Origin: a virus
Reading direction: 5' to 3' (one strand)
DNA length: 23,009 nt
Virus record (IMG/VR): IMGVR_UViG_3300020171_000136
Span: 1-23,009 of that record
Below are positions 6,412 through 23,009 of this stretch, piece after piece; positions within the stretch are counted from its first letter, which is position 1; each line of letters begins with the position of its first letter. Position numbers and translations under genes: made by a program. The notes beneath the pieces are model-generated. The model was not told the DNA's origin. It saw only the letters and a list, made by a program, of their open reading frames with translations, and made no database searches.

Positions 6412-6686
6412 AACTATCTTCAATGAGACTATTTTTAGTGGTTTATGTATTGCTGTGTGTTCTTAGTGTTTTCGTCATTGTAGTGTTAGTTATCACGGAT
6501 CATCTGCCGGTAGGGCAATACCATCCGGCCCAGGGGATTGAATCGCCTAAGCCAGATATTAAAACATCTTGTACTGATTGGGAAACGATCAGTAAGCGCC
6601 TATTAAGGGAAGACTATCACCTGGACCCGATACGCAGGGAGATTATAGAGGATTTTATAAGCAGGAATAAGGGAAGTGCGCAATGA
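6408..6686 (+). CDS. Membrane-anchored hypothetical protein (92 aa)
   Basis: It starts with an ATGA overlap behind AAGGGGAAAAA. Residues 6-30 (MRLFLVVYVLLCVLSVFVIV) form a transmembrane helix or uncleaved signal, then a polar tail with a Pro-rich linker (HPAQGIESPKPDIK) and a charged C-terminal helix. The layout (N-in anchor, periplasmic tail) resembles phage inner-membrane accessory proteins. Translation is coupled to the Wzy-like gene downstream by another ATGA overlap, so a shared membrane role is possible but unproven. Confidence 0.65.
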   Translation: MKLSSMRLFLVVYVLLCVLSVFVIVVLVITDHLPVGQYHPAQGIESPKPDIKTSCTDWETISKRLLREDYHLDPIRREIIEDFISRNKGSAQ

Positions 6687-7840
6687 CCTATCTATTTTAC
6701 CTGCTCCTGCTTATCGTCCCGCTGATTACCTATAACAAAAGCATTGATAGTTTTGTTATTAAGACCTTGCTTATCAGCATTACCGGCTTTGCGGCTTTAG
6801 GATATTGGATCACAAAAGAGTGGCGGGGGATTGCGAGTATTCCGCTGTATTTCTTTTGGTTATTAATTAGTTATATATTTTGTAAATGGCCACTGGGTCA
6901 TCCAGGAGAAGAAGTCCTTTTGATGTTGTCCTATTTGGGAATATTTTTATTATCTCGAGATTACTTAAATAGAGAATCCATTGTTAATATATTAATGATT
7001 AGTTTAGCTATCACTGTTGGGTATAATTTTTATATTAATCATTCTTTGTTTAATCAGATAAAGAATATTTATCACATGAGGATTATTTGGCATAACTCAA
7101 GCTTTGTTAATGTTCGAATATATTCTGGTTGGCTGTGTTTGTTAATCCCGCTTGTTTTCGCTAAGGCTTTAAAACATGGATTATTCTATTGGGTTTTGTT
7201 TTTCTTTTCTTTACTGGCGATAGTTTGTACAGGTGGCCGCAGTTCCATGCTTGGCCTGGCTGCGGCTTTGGCGGCTTTCTCCGCCTTTCGCTGGGGGAAG
7301 ATGGCATTGATACCTATAATTTGGTTTTGGGTCTTATTTAGCCTTTTAGGGTGGTTTTATCTTCCGCATGAAATACTTGATCCTTCCCGGGCGCATTTCT
7401 GGAGCGGGACGCTTGATCTGATGGCCAGCAACCCCTGGACTGGAAATGGAATTGGTTCATTTTCTACTGTCTACCCATTATTTAAAGAAAATATTATGCA
7501 AGGTGCTGATCCTAACCATTTACTTGTTCATTGCCATAATTTTAGTTTTGAGATGATCAGCGAAATAGGGATCATCGGACTATTGTTATTCTTGTTTATG
7601 ATTTGGAAGATTTGGAAACAAGCGGACAAGAAAGACCCGTTAAACTTGGCTTTAATCGCGGCTATGTTTGGCTGTTTAGTGGATAATTTTTATAATATAA
7701 CATTTTACTATTCAGCAGTCGGGATGATCTTTTGGCTGTATCTGGGGCTCCTGGCAAGCAACAAAAAAAGAGAGGAGAAAAAACATGAAGGTTGGATGGC
7801 GCGGATTGGTGAATGGTCTGATTATTGTTTTTATAATTAG
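6683..7840 (+). CDS. O-antigen ligase/polymerase-like polytopic membrane protein (Wzy/WaaL superfamily)
   Basis: The 385-aa protein has about ten to eleven hydrophobic helices. Superfamily landmarks are visible: 'CTGGRSSMLG' (residues 182-191, equivalent to the conserved arginine after the 'TGSRg' turn), a long periplasmic loop with 'NPWTGNGIGSF' (250-260), and 'HNFSFEMISEIGIIGLLLF' (285-303), equivalent to the HN...E...G..G motif of the Wzy_C (PF04932) domain. Family members polymerise or ligate lipid-linked glycans at the inner membrane's periplasmic face. Phage precedents exist: phage D3 encodes an alternative O-antigen polymerase that changes host serotype. This gene ends the early operon and overlaps a TPR gene by 56 bases. 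Substrate unknown. Confidence 0.85.
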   Translation: MTYLFYLLLLIVPLITYNKSIDSFVIKTLLISITGFAALGYWITKEWRGIASIPLYFFWLLISYIFCKWPLGHPGEEVLLMLSYLGIFLLSRDYLNRESIVNILMISLAITVGYNFYINHSLFNQIKNIYHMRIIWHNSSFVNVRIYSGWLCLLIPLVFAKALKHGLFYWVLFFFSLLAIVCTGGRSSMLGLAAALAAFSAFRWGKMALIPIIWFWVLFSLLGWFYLPHEILDPSRAHFWSGTLDLMASNPWTGNGIGSFSTVYPLFKENIMQGADPNHLLVHCHNFSFEMISEIGIIGLLLFLFMIWKIWKQADKKDPLNLALIAAMFGCLVDNFYNITFYYSAVGMIFWLYLGLLASNKKREEKKHEGWMARIGEWSDYCFYN

Positions 7841-8108
7841 CTTTTGCATGCTATATTTAAGTATTTTCATTAGCGGGATATTTATTTATTCAGCAGTGAA
7901 ACATACAAACAATCAAGAAATTGTCAGAGGGTGTACTGATTTAATAATCGCCAGTTACCTTAACCCTTTTAACCCCGCGCCGCGATACTTTGCCGGACAG
8001 ATACTGGCTGCAAGCGGAGATAAGAAAGGAGCATTGATATTTTACGACCAGGTTATTAAGAGAAGTCCAAACTTTTTAAGGGTAAGAGAATTAAGAAATA
8101 GAGAATAA
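7785..8108 (+). CDS. Membrane-anchored TPR protein, likely C-terminal partner of the Wzy-like protein
   Basis: ATG 7785 has an SD (GAGGAG) within the upstream gene. The 107-aa product has one transmembrane helix (about residues 9-38) and a C-terminal part with TPR-like helices (APRYFAGQILAASGDKKGAL, then IFYDQVIKRSPN). Many O-antigen ligase-like proteins carry a final membrane helix plus TPRs as one chain; here that part is in the +1 frame. The A7 run at 7763-7769 precedes it: loss of one A would fuse both parts through a natural-looking linker (LASNKKERRKNMKVG). It is thus either a separately initiated partner or the product of slippage or an indel. Confidence 0.7.
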   Translation: MKVGWRGLVNGLIIVFIISFCMLYLSIFISGIFIYSAVKHTNNQEIVRGCTDLIIASYLNPFNPAPRYFAGQILAASGDKKGALIFYDQVIKRSPNFLRVRELRNRE

Positions 8109-8219: not shown

Positions 8220-8639
8220 CTACTCTTCAAACGACCACAAAACATTTGCGCTTATCCCCCAGAATTTACCGTCCACATAACTTTTCTTGAAATCACGCCC
8301 AGCAAAAAGCCCAAGTTGTAAGTCGCCAGGTAGATGATATTCTAACCGACAAATTTTAGCCAGAGTATTTACGTTCAACCCGATCCCGCCGATAAGCGGA
8401 AAACTCTCAGCGTCTGAGGTCAACACACCGATATTAAGAGAGAGTAAATCCTTCCACGAGAGGACGGAAATCTGGGCTCCCAGGCTAAAGCTATCCGTGT
8501 TGGTTAAATAGTACGTGCCGATCTGCATATCTTTCACGCCTAAAACCCACGTCTCACCTGCAACATACGTCTGATCCGCCATAACCGGCGCGACCATTAC
8601 GAATACTAACAGCAAAACTAAAATCAATTTCTTAAGCAT
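8220..8639 (-). CDS. Exported beta-rich protein, possible small outer-membrane barrel (139 aa)
   Basis: Start ATG 8639 is chosen because AAAGGGGG lies just upstream; the ORF extends further in frame but without an SD. Residues 1-21 form a typical signal peptide (MLKKLILVLLLVFVMVAPVMA) ending V-M-A before DQ. The mature part (about 118 aa) alternates polar and hydrophobic residues (SLGAQISVLSWKDLLSLNIG, LQLGLFAGRDF, FWGISANVLWSF) and ends with aromatic strand residues, as in outer-membrane beta-barrels. It is the last gene of the late operon, past the lysis genes, where phages often carry 'moron' genes that alter the host surface. Barrel topology is inference. Confidence 0.65.
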   Translation of the reverse strand: MLKKLILVLLLVFVMVAPVMADQTYVAGETWVLGVKDMQIGTYYLTNTDSFSLGAQISVLSWKDLLSLNIGVLTSDAESFPLIGGIGLNVNTLAKICRLEYHLPGDLQLGLFAGRDFKKSYVDGKFWGISANVLWSFEE

Positions 8640-8653
8640 TTTAAACCCCCTTT

Positions 8654-8728
8654 TTAGTTTGTATACAACCATATTGTTGACGCCAACAAAATGATCATCT
8701 TTGCGTCTTTCTTTTCCAGTTCTTCCAT
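8654..8728 (-). CDS. Possible tiny membrane peptide (24 aa)
   Basis: ATG (8728-8726) to TAA (8656-8654) encodes MEELEKKDAKMIILLASTIW plus LYTN. It has a charged N-terminus followed by a hydrophobic segment. No convincing SD is seen upstream, and the segment might simply be leader sequence of the beta-rich protein gene. The rest of 8640-8783 holds only the SD of that gene and no other feature. Confidence 0.25.
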   Translation of the reverse strand: MEELEKKDAKMIILLASTIWLYTN

Positions 8729-16332: not shown

Positions 16333-17289
16333 CTATGCAGTCGTGGTTAAGTTCTTAGCAGTTACGACCAGTTCCCGGGTGTTAGTGTCTGCCGCGTACG
16401 CTTTGAAGGAGCAGTTCAATTTAATCCTGCCCGCGCTGGCGACCATCGGCACTCCCGAGGTCAGTTTGATATTAGCAAAACTAAAGGTTAAACTATACGA
16501 TCCTGTCCCCGCGCCTAACGATCCGCCGGTGTAAGCAATCGAAAGCGCCCGGCTGGTGTTGTTGCGGAAGTCTAAGTACTTGGCGGTGTCCTCAAACTCA
16601 AACACCAAATTACCAGATACTTCCACGCGACCATTTCTCATCGGCTGTTTAATAAACCTCGACCCGATGAAACGTCTATCAGTGGCCAGGTTGTTATTAA
16701 GAGTAAAATCCCAACTCTCTAACAAGACTGTTCCTGTCCCATAAGTACACACCCCCATAGCGAAAGTTACCAAAGGAGAAGTTGAAAGGGTAGCGGTTTC
16801 CGCGGCTAAAGTACCTAATTCCTCAGCGACTATCCCAAACGAGCAAGCCAAAAGACCTGCGTTATTCCCTTTGACGTTCAGAGTGTTGATCATCGCGCCT
16901 TCGGCCCGGAAAGAACAGATGTCTCTGTTGACGGCCACGCTCAAAGAACCCGGCAGTTCGTCGGTAATCTTGAAAACGTGCTGGCCCATAATAGTACCGT
17001 CAGGTTGGGTAATATCTACAGTCCCCATTCCATATCGGAAAAGTCTTTCCCAGCCAGAGAACCGCATATCGAAAGTCAATTCTCCGGAGACAGTAACTGC
17101 CCCTTGCACGACCTTGTTAACATCGCTAAAAACGTTTGATAATCCGTTCGGAAAGAGTTGTTCTTCGGTTACGCCAAGTCCGTCTCCGCCGCTGTTCAAT
17201 TCCAGGAAATTAGTCGAGGCGACACCAGTACCAAAAGTCGTTTCAGTTCCAAAACCTATTGAAGCCTTGTATCCCATTCCATTAGTCAT
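16333..17289 (-). CDS. Major tail protein / tail tube subunit (318 aa)
   Basis: The protein begins with 'GYKASIGFGTETTFGTGVA', a typical start of Phage_tube_2-like tail tube proteins, followed by beta-strand-rich repeats (GELTFDMRFSGWERLFRYGM, 'SLSVAVNRDICSFRAEGAMI'). The repeated 'F.FANIKLTSGVPMVASAGRI' ending fits a duplicated tube fold in which two domains each contribute to the hexameric ring. Position just upstream of the chaperone pair is diagnostic. It overlaps the next-upstream gene by one base at 17289, consistent with coupled, high translation. Confidence 0.85.
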   Translation of the reverse strand: MTNGMGYKASIGFGTETTFGTGVASTNFLELNSGGDGLGVTEEQLFPNGLSNVFSDVNKVVQGAVTVSGELTFDMRFSGWERLFRYGMGTVDITQPDGTIMGQHVFKITDELPGSLSVAVNRDICSFRAEGAMINTLNVKGNNAGLLACSFGIVAEELGTLAAETATLSTSPLVTFAMGVCTYGTGTVLLESWDFTLNNNLATDRRFIGSRFIKQPMRNGRVEVSGNLVFEFEDTAKYLDFRNNTSRALSIAYTGGSLGAGTGSYSLTFSFANIKLTSGVPMVASAGRIKLNCSFKAYAADTNTRELVVTAKNLTTTA

Positions 17290-18462: not shown

Positions 18463-18921
18463 TTAACTCCTATCGCTTTCAAGTTCGTCCAATTTATCCT
18501 GGTCAATAGTTTGATCTTCGGTTTCGTCCTCTCCGAAGGTCGGGGTGAAGTCCATAGTATTTGAATAAACATCATTTGAAACCTGTCTTGCTATTTCCGC
18601 GCCGGCAGAGTCGATTAATTGCTGCTTACCTTCGGCTATTTCGTCTAAAGTTTCCATGGCCTGGTCGTACATTGACTTTACCCATTTACTGTCATTCTGT
18701 TGGGACTCGGTAAAAATCATTCTCATTGCGTAGTAAGAGGTCAATATAATAGCCAGAGAGTTGATCAATGGCGGGGTAGTTGTAAAAGGTACTATATAAA
18801 CTCTTGATAGTTTTCCGTTTATCAGGTTGTTCGCCAACGTGTAAGCCAAAGTTGGAACGTCTGCAGAAACCAAGCCCCGCAGATTAGTAAGGATATCAGC
18901 CTCTACACAGTAATTACTCAT
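18463..18921 (-). CDS. Head-tail connector (gp36/DUF1320-like, 152 aa)
   Basis: The N-terminus 'NYCVEADILTNL' is typical of the Mu gp36-like / DUF1320 connector family, followed by a four-helix core (PPLINSLAIILTSYYAMRMI, SKWVKSMYDQAMETLDEIAE) and an acidic disordered tail (GEDETEDQTIDQDKLDELES). Family members form a neck ring between portal and tail. The start overlaps the stop of a membrane micro-protein (ATGA). Position next to the gpG/S-like gene supports it. Confidence 0.75.
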   Translation of the reverse strand: MSNYCVEADILTNLRGLVSADVPTLAYTLANNLINGKLSRVYIVPFTTTPPLINSLAIILTSYYAMRMIFTESQQNDSKWVKSMYDQAMETLDEIAEGKQQLIDSAGAEIARQVSNDVYSNTMDFTPTFGEDETEDQTIDQDKLDELESDRS

Positions 18922-19120: not shown

Positions 19121-20143
19121 TTAATCCCCCACATTGATAATTGAGAAGAAGGGGGGAGAGGTGGAGGAAGCGGTGTAGGTTACATAACAACTCATTCTAT
19201 ATTCTTTATCTAAATAATTGGAATATGTAAAATCTGTCCATGTAGCAGGGCAAGTAGCAACATCATCTTTAATAAATCCATAAGTTGTGCCGCCTACATC
19301 AGTAAATTTATAATTATACTGCCCAGAAACATCACTTAATCCAGCATAATAAACATTACCAGCAGTAATGGCTAAATTATAATCATCAGCACTTTGTCTA
19401 AATTGGGTGGTAGTGTTACAAGTTGTAGCATTAGTATCTATTCCAATTCTCGTAGCTGGTGACCCTGTGGTTTCACTATACATAGCAGTCTTATATGTTT
19501 TTGTTTCGCTATCTGCCTGTCCGCACCAATAAACATAATTTAAGGTTCCACTTGCAGGCGCTGCCCCTAATTGGGCAAGCATACAAACATTTACCGCTAA
19601 TGCCCCAGCACTTGCCCCTGTATTATTATATCCATATTCATCATTGGCTATAACTGGATAGGTTGCTGTATCTAAAAAATCCTGCGGTATAGTTACGGTA
19701 TAAACCCCATTTTTAATAACCAATTCACCCCAGGCAATTTTTCCATTTGCATCTATAAATCGTGGGCAGTAAATATCCCCAAACTTACCAATACCGTAAT
19801 TAGTTTTCCCTAATTCATAATTCTTTTTGGTCTTATGAAATATCTCATAACATCCTTGTACTTTTGGTTCTCGCCACGATCCCCTAATTGGCTCATCTGT
19901 TTTTCTGATATATTCAATACCGTCTTTGGTAAAAGGCTCATAGTTTTTCCACGGACGCTGGTAGAAAAAATCAAAGTCTTTCCATCCCTCTAACTTAAAA
20001 ACAAATTGATTCGTTGCTGGTTTCTTTTTGAATATCAAACCATATTTAAGGCTATCTTCCCCGTTAGGATAGGTATAAAATTCTTGCTCATCATTAGCAA
20101 TGCTTATTCTATTAACAGTTTTGGTTACTATGCCTTTGGTCAT
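19121..20143 (-). CDS. Large beta-rich surface/appendage protein (340 aa)
   Basis: The N-terminal 170 residues form a beta-rich domain with aromatic/Lys strands (NGEDSLKYGLIFKKKPAT, 'GELVIKNGVYTVTIPQDFLD') ending in 'TATYPVIANDEYGYNNTGAS', a motif I recall from phage appendage and decoration proteins ('YPV.id.tfgy...gg'). The C-terminal half is Thr/Tyr/Ser-rich with four cysteines and looks like a lectin-like sandwich. The gene overlaps an upstream signal-peptide ORF in another frame: one extra base in the A4 run (complement of 20152-20155) would fuse the signal peptide to this protein. Virion or exported location is therefore open. Confidence 0.6.
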   Translation of the reverse strand: MTKGIVTKTVNRISIANDEQEFYTYPNGEDSLKYGLIFKKKPATNQFVFKLEGWKDFDFFYQRPWKNYEPFTKDGIEYIRKTDEPIRGSWREPKVQGCYEIFHKTKKNYELGKTNYGIGKFGDIYCPRFIDANGKIAWGELVIKNGVYTVTIPQDFLDTATYPVIANDEYGYNNTGASAGALAVNVCMLAQLGAAPASGTLNYVYWCGQADSETKTYKTAMYSETTGSPATRIGIDTNATTCNTTTQFRQSADDYNLAITAGNVYYAGLSDVSGQYNYKFTDVGGTTYGFIKDDVATCPATWTDFTYSNYLDKEYRMSCYVTYTASSTSPPFFSIINVGD

Positions 20144-20226
20144 TCCATATCTTTTGTGTCAAGGACAGTCGCCCCGTGAGCCTGCGTCGCTATCAACAGA
20201 AATAGTAAGAATAGAAGTTTACGCAT
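20140..20226 (-). CDS. Signal-peptide ORF (28 aa), possibly the detached N-terminus of the 340-aa protein
   Basis: ATG (20226-20224) has AGGTGGT upstream. The product MRKLLFLLFLLIATQAHGAT plus VLDTKDME is an almost pure Sec signal peptide with a cleavage-type ending (A-H-G-A). It stops with ATGA overlapping the next start. A one-base insertion in the AAAA at 20155-20152 would continue as ...VLDTKRYG-MTKGIVTKTVNR, a smooth fusion. It may be a stand-alone leader, or a frame break. Confidence 0.5.
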   Translation of the reverse strand: MRKLLFLLFLLIATQAHGATVLDTKDME

Positions 20227-20308
20227 ACATACCACCTAAATAAAGAATTAAAAACATCCCGATTGTGAAAATCTCCAAGATTATAACCGCGTACAAAAAG
20301 CATCTCAC
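20219..20308 (-). CDS. Membrane micro-protein with GTG start (29 aa)
   Basis: A GTG at 20308 overlaps the stop of the upstream gene (GTGA). The 29-codon frame (M)RCFLYAVIILEIFTIGMFL plus ILYLGGMYA is strongly hydrophobic and ends at TAA 20219-20221, eight bases into the next ORF. No strong SD; coupling by overlap is the main support. Together with its neighbours it forms a chain of overlapping micro-genes. Confidence 0.35.
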   Translation of the reverse strand: MRCFLYAVIILEIFTIGMFLILYLGGMYA

Positions 20309-20685
20309 CTGTATAACTCCATTGTTTGCATAGTAACCGGATTACCGGTAGTCCCGGAACTGATTGCATAAAGTATGCCGGTATAACTTTCCAATTCCAT
20401 CGGCAGTCTTTCATTCTGTCCCAAGTCCCAATGTTTGGTTGAACTAATAGTCGCCTGGGTAATGGCTGTTGTGGATACACAAACGACGGTGGAGCTGTCG
20501 TTTTCGCAGTTAAAAGATGTCCGAGTTGGACGGGAAGAACAGATCGCCGCGGCGGTCGTAGTCGAAGCAGATACCTGGTCAAAATAGATATTATTTACCG
20601 GAGTAAAGATAAACTTCTGAAAAGACGTTGCCCCAAGACCAAACAGGGCTAAAAGTAAAATCGCTACTAACAGTTTAGGCCGCAT
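20305..20685 (-). CDS. Exported beta-rich protein in the structural operon (126 aa)
   Basis: It starts MRPKLLVAILLLALFGLGAT, a Sec signal peptide with probable cleavage near residue 19. The mature part (about 107 aa) is beta-rich and Thr/Ser-rich with three cysteines (AAAICSSRPT, FNCENDSS, VVCVS), and a C-terminal 'GILYAISSGTTGNPVTMQTMEL', like small jelly-roll decoration proteins. A signal peptide on a protein encoded between head genes is odd: either an exported surface modifier or a membrane-associated virion component. Start ATG 20685 follows the SD AGGAGAAATA. Confidence 0.55.
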   Translation of the reverse strand: MRPKLLVAILLLALFGLGATSFQKFIFTPVNNIYFDQVSASTTTAAAICSSRPTRTSFNCENDSSTVVCVSTTAITQATISSTKHWDLGQNERLPMELESYTGILYAISSGTTGNPVTMQTMELYR

Positions 20686-20686
20686 T

Positions 20687-20986
20687 TTATTTCTCCTTCT
20701 TTTTAGTTTTAGAATCAGTTTTTTCTTTAATAGGTGTTTCCATGAGTGTGGGTTTCGGCTCGGGTGCGGGTTTCATTCCCGCGAACGGAAAGATAACCAC
20801 CTTCCCCTTGAATAGTTTTACATCGTCTCCTTTAATCAGCCGCAGGGCAATACCCATTTTCCGCCGGATTTCCAGGGGTAGGCGGTCTTCAGGGACGTCA
20901 ATTTTTAATCCTGTTCCCCGCTCTAAATACTTACCAGATATTTTAATGTTATTTGTCACCTTGAACAGTAAATACTGACCACTCAT
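20687..20986 (-). CDS. Hypothetical head-region protein (99 aa)
   Basis: ATG 20986 has AAAGGGGGAATTT upstream and overlaps the glycosyltransferase end by 38 bases. The N-terminal 70 residues resemble a small beta-barrel of the type 'F.V...I.I.G....RG......' (FKVTNNIKISGKYLERGTGL), followed by a Pro/Lys/Glu-rich disordered tail. Not recognised; similar small proteins are encoded between capsid and neck genes. Probably cytoplasmic or virion. Confidence 0.55.
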   Translation of the reverse strand: MSGQYLLFKVTNNIKISGKYLERGTGLKIDVPEDRLPLEIRRKMGIALRLIKGDDVKLFKGKVVIFPFAGMKPAPEPKPTLMETPIKEKTDSKTKKKEK

Positions 20987-22583
20987 AAATTCCCCCTTTG
21001 ATAAAATGATATGTTCTTAACGCAGTATCGCAGACGATTTTATATCCTTTTCTGCCGGCCTTGAAGAACCACCATAAGTCCTCTGATCCAAAGCCTTTTT
21101 GGTTAGGCTCAAACGAAATATCATCTGCTACCTCTCTGGTCATCATCACACAACCCATTCCCGCGGCCCCGACTTCGTGGACTCCACCGTCTATCAGTTC
21201 AGGGCAAAACCTGAACGGGCCTAAGCCTGTATTGAAGTATTGCCAGTCCTTTGTAGCTTCCATTACTTCGAGATCAGTCTTTTCTTTCATCTGCTCTTCA
21301 TAAGTTTGTAAATCGTACTCTGCCTTCTTAGTAAATAACATCGGCTTGTTAGGTTCCGCCGACTTATACATCACTGCCCCGCAAGAAATCGGGTGTTCTT
21401 TAGTGCAGAGCTTAAATAGTCTTTCAATAGCGTCCGGGGACATCAAGACATCGCAGTCCCAGTACATTATATGCGAAACATTTAACTCTTTGCCGAGTTC
21501 TCGGACAAAGTTTCTACTGTCTACAATCGTGTTGTGTTTAATCCCGCCTATACTTACCTTTCGCGGTAAATGCACTTCCGCAAATCCCGAAGGAATAAGT
21601 TTTGTTTGGGCCGTCTCAAGAGTTTCTTCCCAGAAGTTCTCACCTGAATTATTGATAGCAAAACAAATATGAATATTTCCTTTATAGAAATTCTGCTGGG
21701 CCAGATTGTGAATTAAATGCGGCATACACCACTCGTACCTTTCAGAAATCGGAATACCTATTAAAATAGTAGGTTGTCCTTCTGGCATTTTGTCATACAT
21801 TTCCCGGTCGGGCTTGGCCACGAATTTCCAGTTATCAATAAACCTCGGTAAGTGTTTATAGACCTTGCTGTTGTCTTGGCTAAAGACTTTTTTAGAGGTT
21901 TGGGCTACCCAATGACCTACTCTGGCTTCGGCGCACTGGACTATTTTTATCCCCTTTACGCCCGCGCGCATACAAAAGTCAATGTCCTCAAACTGGTAAA
22001 AACACTCCGGGTCGGGATCGTATTCGGTTAATCCGTCCAAATTAAACCAGGTTTTTCGAGTAATCAGCACACAGGAAAAAGTCACTGCTTGCACTTCTCT
22101 AGTAATTAGTGTCCGGGGATCGAAAGGTTCGGTTCCGTAAAGTACATGAAAAGGCTGGTGTTTTTCATTAAAAGCTACGCCCGCATGAACGGTTTTAAAG
22201 TTTTCAGGATTGAACTGATAAGACCCGACTATCCCAGCCCCTTGCTCTTCGGAACATTTGATCATCTGCAATAACCAGTCTTTATTCGGGATGATATCGT
22301 CGTTCATTAAAAGAATGTATTCGCCCCGAGCGAACTTAACCGCCTGGTTATTAGCCCTTGAGAAGTCTAGGTTCTCGGTGTTTGTGATTATCCGAAAATC
22401 TCTAAACGTCTTTTCGGCGAACTTACAGAACTCTTTGGTCTTTTCGTCCGCCGCGTTGTCAATGAGCAAGATTTCAAAATCCTTAAAGTTATTAATCTTC
22501 TCTAAGTTATAATAGAGCAGGTTAATAGTTTTTACCAAACAATCGTAATTATCGTGAGTCGGGATGATTATTGATACTTTCAT
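20949..22583 (-). CDS. Two-domain family 2 (GT-A) glycosyltransferase (544 aa)
   Basis: Domain 1 (residues 1-240) is a standard GT2: 'KVSIIIPTHDNYDCL' start, LLIDNAADEKT, 'SRANNQAVKFARGEYILLMNDD' with the N94-D95-D96 metal site, and 'FYQFEDIDFCMRAGVKGIK' with the E/D catalytic block (198-203), then VGHW. Domain 2 (about 270-540) is a second GT-A fold: 'PTILIGIPISERY', DSRNF, 'MYWDCDVLMSPDAIERLF' with D376-C-D378, and 'GFGSEDLWWFFKAGRKGYKI' (498-515) plus YHF. No membrane segment, so cytoplasmic. Genes around it are virion or exported proteins. It may glycosylate phage structural proteins or build a host-surface sugar; acceptor is unknown. Confidence 0.9.
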   Translation of the reverse strand: MKVSIIIPTHDNYDCLVKTINLLYYNLEKINNFKDFEILLIDNAADEKTKEFCKFAEKTFRDFRIITNTENLDFSRANNQAVKFARGEYILLMNDDIIPNKDWLLQMIKCSEEQGAGIVGSYQFNPENFKTVHAGVAFNEKHQPFHVLYGTEPFDPRTLITREVQAVTFSCVLITRKTWFNLDGLTEYDPDPECFYQFEDIDFCMRAGVKGIKIVQCAEARVGHWVAQTSKKVFSQDNSKVYKHLPRFIDNWKFVAKPDREMYDKMPEGQPTILIGIPISERYEWCMPHLIHNLAQQNFYKGNIHICFAINNSGENFWEETLETAQTKLIPSGFAEVHLPRKVSIGGIKHNTIVDSRNFVRELGKELNVSHIMYWDCDVLMSPDAIERLFKLCTKEHPISCGAVMYKSAEPNKPMLFTKKAEYDLQTYEEQMKEKTDLEVMEATKDWQYFNTGLGPFRFCPELIDGGVHEVGAAGMGCVMMTREVADDISFEPNQKGFGSEDLWWFFKAGRKGYKIVCDTALRTYHFIKGGIYEWSVFTVQGDK

Positions 22584-22610
22584 ATTCCAATTCTCCTTTA
22601 AATCTGTAAT

Positions 22611-23009
22611 TTAAGATTGTCCGCCAACAAGAGTCCAAGAACCGGTTCCGGTTGATTCGGCTATATACAGCTTTCCAACTGTAGAAATATACATATCTCC
22701 AATAGCAGTTGCGGTCGGACTGGAAGCGCACATACCCCATAATTTAACAGTCGTAGCCCCAGCAGTGCCGGACGAATACGACACGCCGCCAGTTATATCA
22801 ATAGGTTTTGAAATTGCCAACCCATTAGTACTATCCGTAACCGTGGTATTGGTAAATACGAGCAAGGTTTTTGACAGATAGGTTGACGTGCTGGTATAAA
22901 GCGTCTCTAAAGTAGGCAACTGTGCCAACCAAGCCTTCAAACTCATGTGTACAGAAGATGACTGTACCAAACTGGTCAAGGCAAAGGTCAGCATAAAAAC
23001 CAGAGTACA
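22611..23009 (-). CDS. Exported/structural protein, 5' end outside window (at least 133 codons)
   Basis: The frame is open from the window edge to TAA 22613-22611. The upstream-most residues (CTLVFMLTFALTSLVQSSSV) look like the hydrophobic core of a signal peptide, so the true start is probably beyond 23009, although ATG 22994 lies in frame. The C-terminus 'AIGDMYISTVGKLYIAESTG, then TGSWTLVGG' is a beta motif common in phage virion and fibre proteins (G.ly..t.gklyi...g....W..vg). A Ser/Thr-rich Gly-containing middle fits a decoration or fibre-like protein. Intergenic 22584-22610 holds only the SD of the glycosyltransferase gene. Confidence 0.6.
   Translation of the reverse strand, partial: CTLVFMLTFALTSLVQSSSVHMSLKAWLAQLPTLETLYTSTSTYLSKTLLVFTNTTVTDSTNGLAISKPIDITGGVSYSSGTAGATTVKLWGMCASSPTATAIGDMYISTVGKLYIAESTGTGSWTLVGGQS

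What the first reader, a model, noticed from the sequence alone, without database searches (positions are those of the whole stretch)
20949..22583. Tandem GT-A glycosyltransferase embedded in the virion gene operon
Two complete GT-A-like domains, each with acidic metal-binding motif (NDD at 94-96; DCD at 376-378), in one protein within the late operon between structural/exported genes. Known: a few phages glycosylate virion or DNA components. Inference: transcription with structural genes suggests the acceptor could be a capsid decoration or tail component, or an exported protein such as those encoded on both sides; combined with the Wzy-like gene the phage has two glycan-active loci.
Basis: partly seen in the sequence, partly recalled or inferred. 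Interest (0 to 1): 0.6.

Follow-up and report, generated by a model that had tools for sequence, protein, structure and literature searches.

The report
Two-domain sugar transferase in capsid module
This phage carries, wedged among its particle-building genes, an enzyme made of two sugar-attaching domains whose active sites and gene position are kept in distantly related phages, so it most likely decorates the virus particle itself with sugar, an uncommon but already documented habit among phages.

Summary
ORF 20949-22583 (-) encodes 544 aa with two GT-A domains: an N-terminal GT2 domain (Pfam E 5e-28) and a divergent C-terminal domain related to phrog_1574, STIV A197, Mnn9 and collagen galactosyltransferase. 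Both domains keep DxD-type, ED and His residues in all five full-length family members (homologues 33-40% identical to the window protein). An AlphaFold model (pLDDT 84) shows two GT-A folds. In all five phages the gene lies just upstream of the head-tail adaptor gene, downstream of the major capsid gene wherever the contig reaches that far. It diverges in step with the tail tube gene (r=0.97 over 10 non-independent pairs), so it behaves as a core gene, not mobile cargo. Single-domain relatives of the C-terminal half sit in the same capsid-adaptor slot in unrelated podo-, sipho- and archaeal viruses and in mycobacteriophage Thibault, whose cluster was reported in 2013 to carry glycosyltransferases there, including a two-domain one (Omega gp16). 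Best reading: a two-step enzyme that glycosylates a virion protein. Fold, motifs and synteny are shown; activity, sugar and acceptor are inferred. It is a new variant of a known kind.

The parts
20949..22583 (-). Tandem GT-A glycosyltransferase, 544 aa
   Evidence: ORF; Pfam GT2 5e-28; four full-length homologues; AlphaFold model pLDDT 84, pTM 0.72
21792..22583 (-). N-terminal GT2 domain (residues 1-264)
   Evidence: PF00535 1.8e-22; VIA-align Z 22 to polypeptide GalNAc-transferase 2 over 243 residues
20952..21791 (-). C-terminal GT-A domain (residues 265-544), phrog_1574/A197-like
   Evidence: phrog_1574 3.9e-7; separate model pTM 0.83; Z 20 to COLGALT1 and Mnn9, Z 16.9 to STIV A197; family profile to A197 1.6e-6
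22296..22304 (-). NDD metal-binding motif, residues 94-96
   Evidence: invariant in the five family members
21978..21989 (-). EDID motif, residues 199-202 (catalytic-base region of domain 1)
   Evidence: invariant in the five family members
21912..21914 (-). His 224, metal-ligand position of domain 1
   Evidence: invariant in the five family members
21450..21458 (-). DCD (DxD) motif, residues 376-378
   Evidence: D376 and D378 invariant in the five family members and in the ten-row C-domain alignment
21078..21083 (-). ED motif, residues 501-502 of domain 2
   Evidence: invariant
21006..21008 (-). His 526, metal-ligand position of domain 2
   Evidence: invariant
22593..22597 (-). Ribosome-binding site AGGAG of the GT gene
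   Evidence: sequence
22611..23009 (-). Upstream ORF, 5' end cut by the contig edge; C-terminal repeat shared with exported fibre-like proteins of a related phage
   Evidence: weak BLASTP 0.009-0.016 to L032 763-1194 and 11456-11773
20687..20986 (-). 99-aa protein overlapping the GT 3' end by 38 nt; small ORFs sit in the same place in L008 and L032
   Evidence: L008 and L032 versions are related to each other, similarity of the window copy to them is by eye only
20305..20685 (-). 126-aa protein with a signal-peptide-like N-terminus, 25% Ser+Thr
18463..18921 (-). Head-tail adaptor (Gp36 type), the conserved downstream neighbour
   Evidence: phrog_195 3e-11; PF07030 1.4e-10
16333..17289 (-). Tail tube protein, used as divergence yardstick
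   Evidence: PF18906 6e-23; pairwise identities

Best explanation
A cytoplasmic, soluble (no obvious membrane segment in sequence or model) two-active-site glycosyltransferase made late with the head and tail genes. Each GT-A domain binds a nucleotide-sugar and a divalent metal; one domain probably puts the first sugar on a side chain of a virion protein and the other extends it, giving a short glycan on the particle. The donor sugars would come from the host, since no sugar-nucleotide genes were recognised in the window. The most likely acceptors are the proteins encoded beside it: the major capsid protein, the small proteins between capsid and GT, or the adaptor/tail tube. Shown here: fold (predicted), catalytic motifs, gene order, matched divergence. 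Inferred: activity, sugar identity, order of the two steps, acceptor.
For: (1) Both domains keep DxD-type, ED and His residues in the five family members (homologues at 33-40% identity), and both halves are conserved alike. (2) Same gene position in all five: small ORF(s) - tandem GT - head-tail adaptor - neck - terminator - tail tube, with the capsid gene (phrog_1005 5e-76, 5e-65) upstream in L008 and L035, and a 5'-truncated protein in L032 that matches the L008 capsid by eye. (3) GT identity tracks tail tube identity, r=0.97, mean 39.5% against 42.0%. (4) Single-domain relatives of the C-terminal half lie between capsid and adaptor-like genes in podo-like phages and L129, and in the head-tail interval of a Methanobacteriales virus; a wider set of 86 loci (20 clusters at 80% identity) mostly shows capsid - ~105-aa ORF - GT - ~207-aa structural protein. 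(5) Thibault gp11, directly after the capsid gene, belongs to that family (E 2e-15); LittleE gp15 in the same slot is 41% identical to Che8 gp108, and Che8 virion proteins are reported as glycosylated (PMC12363180). (6) STIV A197, the best-scoring solved relative by sequence, is an essential viral GT proposed to glycosylate the STIV capsid protein (PMC10551542).
Against: No glycan has been seen on any of these phages; all five are metagenomic contigs. Gene position argues for function in the virion but does not name the acceptor. The GTs tied experimentally to mycobacteriophage virions (e.g. Che8 gp110) are not specific homologues. Some single-domain relatives sit next to tail-fibre rather than capsid genes. 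Broader tail-tube relatives L121 and L122 lack a recognised GT in this slot, so it is optional beyond this clade.
Confidence: 0.64

Rival explanations
1. The enzyme acts on host glycans (capsule, LPS or S-layer) to block superinfection or change receptors, and is merely transcribed with late genes.
For: Domain 1 is of the same GT2 type as bacterial polysaccharide-locus enzymes; a Wzy-like membrane protein is encoded elsewhere in the window; a late-module GT in 'Gratiaviridae' was interpreted this way (PMC8008677).
Against: Fixed slot next to the adaptor in five divergent phages and matched divergence with the tail tube are unusual for cargo genes; no membrane anchor or lipid-carrier partner gene recognised beside it; late expression leaves little time to change the surface (inference).
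Confidence: 0.17
2. The enzyme glycosylates the phage's own exported, Ser/Thr-rich small proteins before Sec export, or builds an oligosaccharide that the Wzy/ligase-like protein transfers to them.
For: Signal-peptide-like proteins lie next to or near the GT in four of five phages; the Wzy-like protein also matches an O-oligosaccharyltransferase model weakly (TfpM 2e-6).
Against: L035 has the GT but the two genes beside it lack convincing signal peptides; single-domain relatives in podo-like phages sit by capsid genes; the Wzy-like gene is in a different transcription unit.
Confidence: 0.1
3. The enzyme glycosylates modified bases of phage DNA.
For: Phage GTs of this role exist (cited in PMC12619734).
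Against: No hydroxymethylpyrimidine or other base-modifying gene was recognised among the window genes scanned, though the contig is partial; the closest folds act on proteins or glycans.
Confidence: 0.04
4. A catalytically dead GT-A protein retained as a structural or assembly factor.
For: Position beside capsid and adaptor genes.
Against: Metal and catalytic residues of both domains are invariant at 17-40% identity.
Confidence: 0.05

Closest known systems
Omega gp16 and the GT cluster of Cluster J mycobacteriophages (PMC3706429; Thibault and LittleE read)
   Same: Two GT catalytic domains in one protein, located between major capsid and head-tail connector genes
   Different: LittleE gp15/gp17, which match the two Omega gp16 domains, score best against the GT2-type profile and poorly against the C-domain profile; the cluster also holds several GTs, methyltransferases and a kinase. 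Omega gp16 itself was not in the collection, so it was not compared directly.
STIV A197 (PDB 2c0n), putative capsid glycosyltransferase of an archaeal virus
   Same: C-terminal domain family is related by sequence (profile E 1.6e-6) and fold (Z 16.9, rmsd 2.4 over 171 residues)
   Different: Single domain, tailless membrane-containing virus, different gene context
phrog_1574 (unknown function)
   Same: C-terminal domain matches (3.9e-7); stand-alone members share the capsid-adaptor slot
   Different: Stand-alone genes of about 210 aa without the GT2 half
E. coli K4 chondroitin polymerase K4CP / Pasteurella heparosan synthase 2
   Same: Two tandem GT-A domains; top full-length Foldseek matches (1e-18)
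   Different: Polysaccharide polymerases; 12-13% identity and whole-chain rmsd about 20 A, so shared domain packing is not shown
Che8 gp108-110, GTs of a phage with glycosylated virions
   Same: GT enzymes of a phage reported to glycosylate its virion (PMC12363180)
   Different: Encoded near the genome end; gp110 is not a specific homologue

Membership tests
GT-A glycosyltransferases (GT2 clan) | GT2 profile match above curated cut-off | tested here: met
   PF00535 98.5 bits for the protein, 80.5 for domain 1; domain 2 alone 21.9 against 23.3
GT-A glycosyltransferases (GT2 clan) | GT-A fold with acidic DxD-type metal motif and acidic catalytic base | tested here: met
   predicted models and their matches; invariant motifs
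GT-A glycosyltransferases (GT2 clan) | sugar transfer activity | not testable with these tools
   needs biochemistry
phrog_1574 / A197-like family (domain 2) | profile match and the seven residues invariant in the family alignment | tested here: met
phrog_1574 / A197-like family (domain 2) | slot between capsid and adaptor genes | tested here: met
   adaptor downstream in all five phages, capsid upstream where the contig reaches; the window contig itself ends before the capsid gene
Omega gp16-type two-domain GT | two GT domains in one protein in the capsid-connector interval | tested here: met
   PMC3706429
Omega gp16-type two-domain GT | orthology of both domains | tested here: inconclusive
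   Omega gp16 not held; LittleE gp15 and gp17 match GT2-type profile A1 (1e-5, 5e-10); against C-domain profile A5 gp15 scores 0.045 and gp17 is not listed
Virion-glycosylating phage enzymes | glycan on a virion protein dependent on the gene | not testable with these tools
   metagenomic contig
Bifunctional polysaccharide polymerases (K4CP, PmHS2) | two GT-A domains in one chain | tested here: met
Bifunctional polysaccharide polymerases (K4CP, PmHS2) | same relative packing of the two domains | tested here: inconclusive
   whole-chain rmsd about 19-20 A although single domains fit at 3-4 A; inter-domain placement in the model may be unreliable

The most novel reading that the evidence does not exclude
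The phrog_1574/A197-like domain marks a widespread, unrecognised virion-glycosylation enzyme held in one fixed slot between capsid and adaptor genes across podo-, sipho- and archaeal tailed viruses and shared with the tailless archaeal virus STIV; the window phage clade fused it to a second transferase to build a disaccharide on the particle.
Probability: 0.38. Interest if true: 0.75.

Novelty: new variant of a known kind. Interest (0 to 1): 0.52.

Why it matters
In the papers read here, glycosylated tailed-phage particles are documented mainly in mycobacteriophages. A catalytically intact transferase family locked beside capsid genes in unrelated environmental phages would mean particle glycosylation is much more common, would give a testable function to phrog_1574 (unknown function in PHROGs v4), and links it to the essential but uncharacterised A197 of STIV.

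Tried and rejected
Single-sequence scans of viral and GTDB contigs found no relatives. Hits in the phage collection looked like bacterial polysaccharide loci in unannotated records and were not counted as phage homologues. The alignment-based GTDB scan returned 80 loci that match only the N-terminal part of the query (residues up to about 305), none full length. 'Moron' cargo was considered and disfavoured by matched divergence. dN/dS was not usable: dS saturated. Che8 gp110 and gp109 were compared and give no specific relationship. Omega and Corndog records were not held under the accessions tried. A literature search for phrog_1574 by name found nothing. The L008 gene 2708-3346 looks GT-A-like by eye but matched no Pfam or PHROG family, so it is not used as evidence.

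Full report
Check of the observation. Pfam finds a GT2 domain at 5e-28. Taken alone, the N-terminal half scores 1.8e-22 and the C-terminal half 1.8e-4 to GT2, just under the curated cut-off, with Anp1 at 2e-3. The halves match each other at E 3e-5 in the segment holding the ED and His residues. The motif positions given (NDD 94-96, DCD 376-378) are right.

Homologues. The window is a whole IMG/VR record of 23,009 bases with no near relative in the phage collection. A seeded alignment scan recovered four full-length homologues in viral contigs: L008 and L032 (about 40%), L009 and L035 (33-34%). All keep N94 D95 D96, E199 D200 D202, H224, D376, D378, E501 D502 and H526. N- and C-terminal halves are about equally conserved. 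The 80 best GTDB loci match only the N-terminal part, so full-length tandem proteins were seen only in viral contigs, within the limits of a pattern-seeded scan.

Gene context. In all five phages the gene stands before the head-tail adaptor, directly (L009, L035), after one small ORF (L008, L032) or after three ORFs (window), followed by neck, terminator and tail tube. The major capsid gene lies upstream in L008 and L035 (phrog_1005 at 5e-76 and 5e-65); L032 begins inside a protein that matches the L008 capsid by eye; L009 and the window end before reaching it. GT identity rises and falls with tail tube identity (r=0.97), adaptor (0.91) and terminator (0.93) over ten non-independent pairs from five phages, with nearly equal means (39.5% against 42.0% for the tube). 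This is what a vertically kept structural-module gene looks like, not a recently acquired cargo gene.

Structure. AlphaFold2 on the five-row alignment gave pLDDT 84 and pTM 0.72. Domain 1 fits polypeptide GalNAc-transferases at Z about 22 over 243 residues. The C-terminal domain modelled alone (pTM 0.83) fits COLGALT1 and LH3 at Z about 20, Mnn9 at 19.6 and STIV A197 at 16.9 with the lowest rmsd of the listed rows, 2.4 A over 171 residues. Full-length Foldseek leaders are the two-domain enzymes K4CP and PmHS2, but whole-chain rmsd is about 20 A, so only the domain count is shared with confidence. Fold neighbours do not prove an acceptor.

The C-terminal domain family. It matches phrog_1574, a PHROG of unknown function. 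Stand-alone members were read in annotated podo-like genomes (the records themselves are titled Myoviridae, but carry P22/T7-type stabilisation and tubular protein names), where the order is capsid, about 100-aa ORF, GT, adaptor-like protein, in a Methanobacteriales virus and in L129. Ten rows at 17-60% identity to the first share seven invariant residues including both Asp of DxD, ED and His. A wider scan gave 80 loci; with six others they form 20 clusters at 80% GT identity. Among 26 upstream proteins from these, 8 match capsid family phrog_1328 and 4 match phrog_10 (families may overlap in members); among 17 immediate downstream proteins, 7 match virion structural family phrog_2941 and 4 neck family phrog_5223. 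The tool gave counts, not per-locus tables, and the 80 loci are the best hits to one query, so this is an estimate from a biased sample; a few loci sit by tail fibres instead. By sequence profile the best solved relative is STIV A197 (1.6e-6), then Mnn9. A197 is reported as essential and proposed to glycosylate the STIV capsid protein (PMC10551542).

Known precedents. Cluster J mycobacteriophages were described in 2013 with 8-10 genes between capsid and connector, many of them GTs, and Omega gp16 with two catalytic domains like chondroitin synthase (PMC3706429). Reading LittleE and Thibault confirmed the placement. Thibault gp11, annotated hypothetical in the record and directly after the capsid gene, belongs to the phrog_1574-like family (2e-15). 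LittleE gp15 is 41% identical to Che8 gp108; Che8 virion proteins are reported as glycosylated, with gp110 named as essential for it (PMC12363180, which cites the primary work; that paper was not held). This ties the slot to virion glycosylation by association, not by direct test.

Verdict. The best account is a late, soluble, two-step glycosyltransferase acting on a particle protein with host-supplied sugar nucleotides. Activity, sugar, order of steps and acceptor remain inferred. It is a new variant of a known kind; the broader point worth following is the fixed capsid-adaptor position of the phrog_1574/A197-like domain.

Noticed in passing
window 20140-20226 (-) and 19121-20143 (-): A 28-codon ORF that reads like a signal peptide (MRKLLFLLFLLIATQAHGATVLDTKDME, then stop) ends in an ATGA overlap with the start of the 340-aa gene: translational coupling, a frameshifted exported protein or a sequencing error.
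   Followed up: partly
L032 763-1194, 1256-2026, 11456-11773, 11773-13326; L008 7023-7978; window 20305-20685: Fibre-like or small late-module proteins in these phages begin with signal-peptide-like sequences, odd for particle components assembled in the cytoplasm.
   Followed up: partly
window 6683-7840 (+): Wzy_C/O-antigen ligase-like membrane protein (Pfam 2.5e-9; weak TfpM and IctB matches) in the + strand block, followed by a small protein at 7785-8108 that looks TPR-like by eye.
   Followed up: partly
L122 3201-3929: Sulfotransferase-like ORF (weak, PF13469 E 0.012) in the head module of a tail-tube relative: another possible modifying enzyme among structural genes.
   Followed up: no
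L123 6693-7490; L129 1729-2400; L008 2708-3346: Further GT-A-like ORFs inside head modules: after the capsid gene in L123 (weak GT2, 6e-4), between portal and protease in L129 (GT2 2.5e-23), and after the portal in L008 (by eye only).
   Followed up: partly
window 8220-8672 (-): Exported 150-aa protein that looks by eye like an outer-membrane beta-strand protein, hinting at a diderm host.
   Followed up: no
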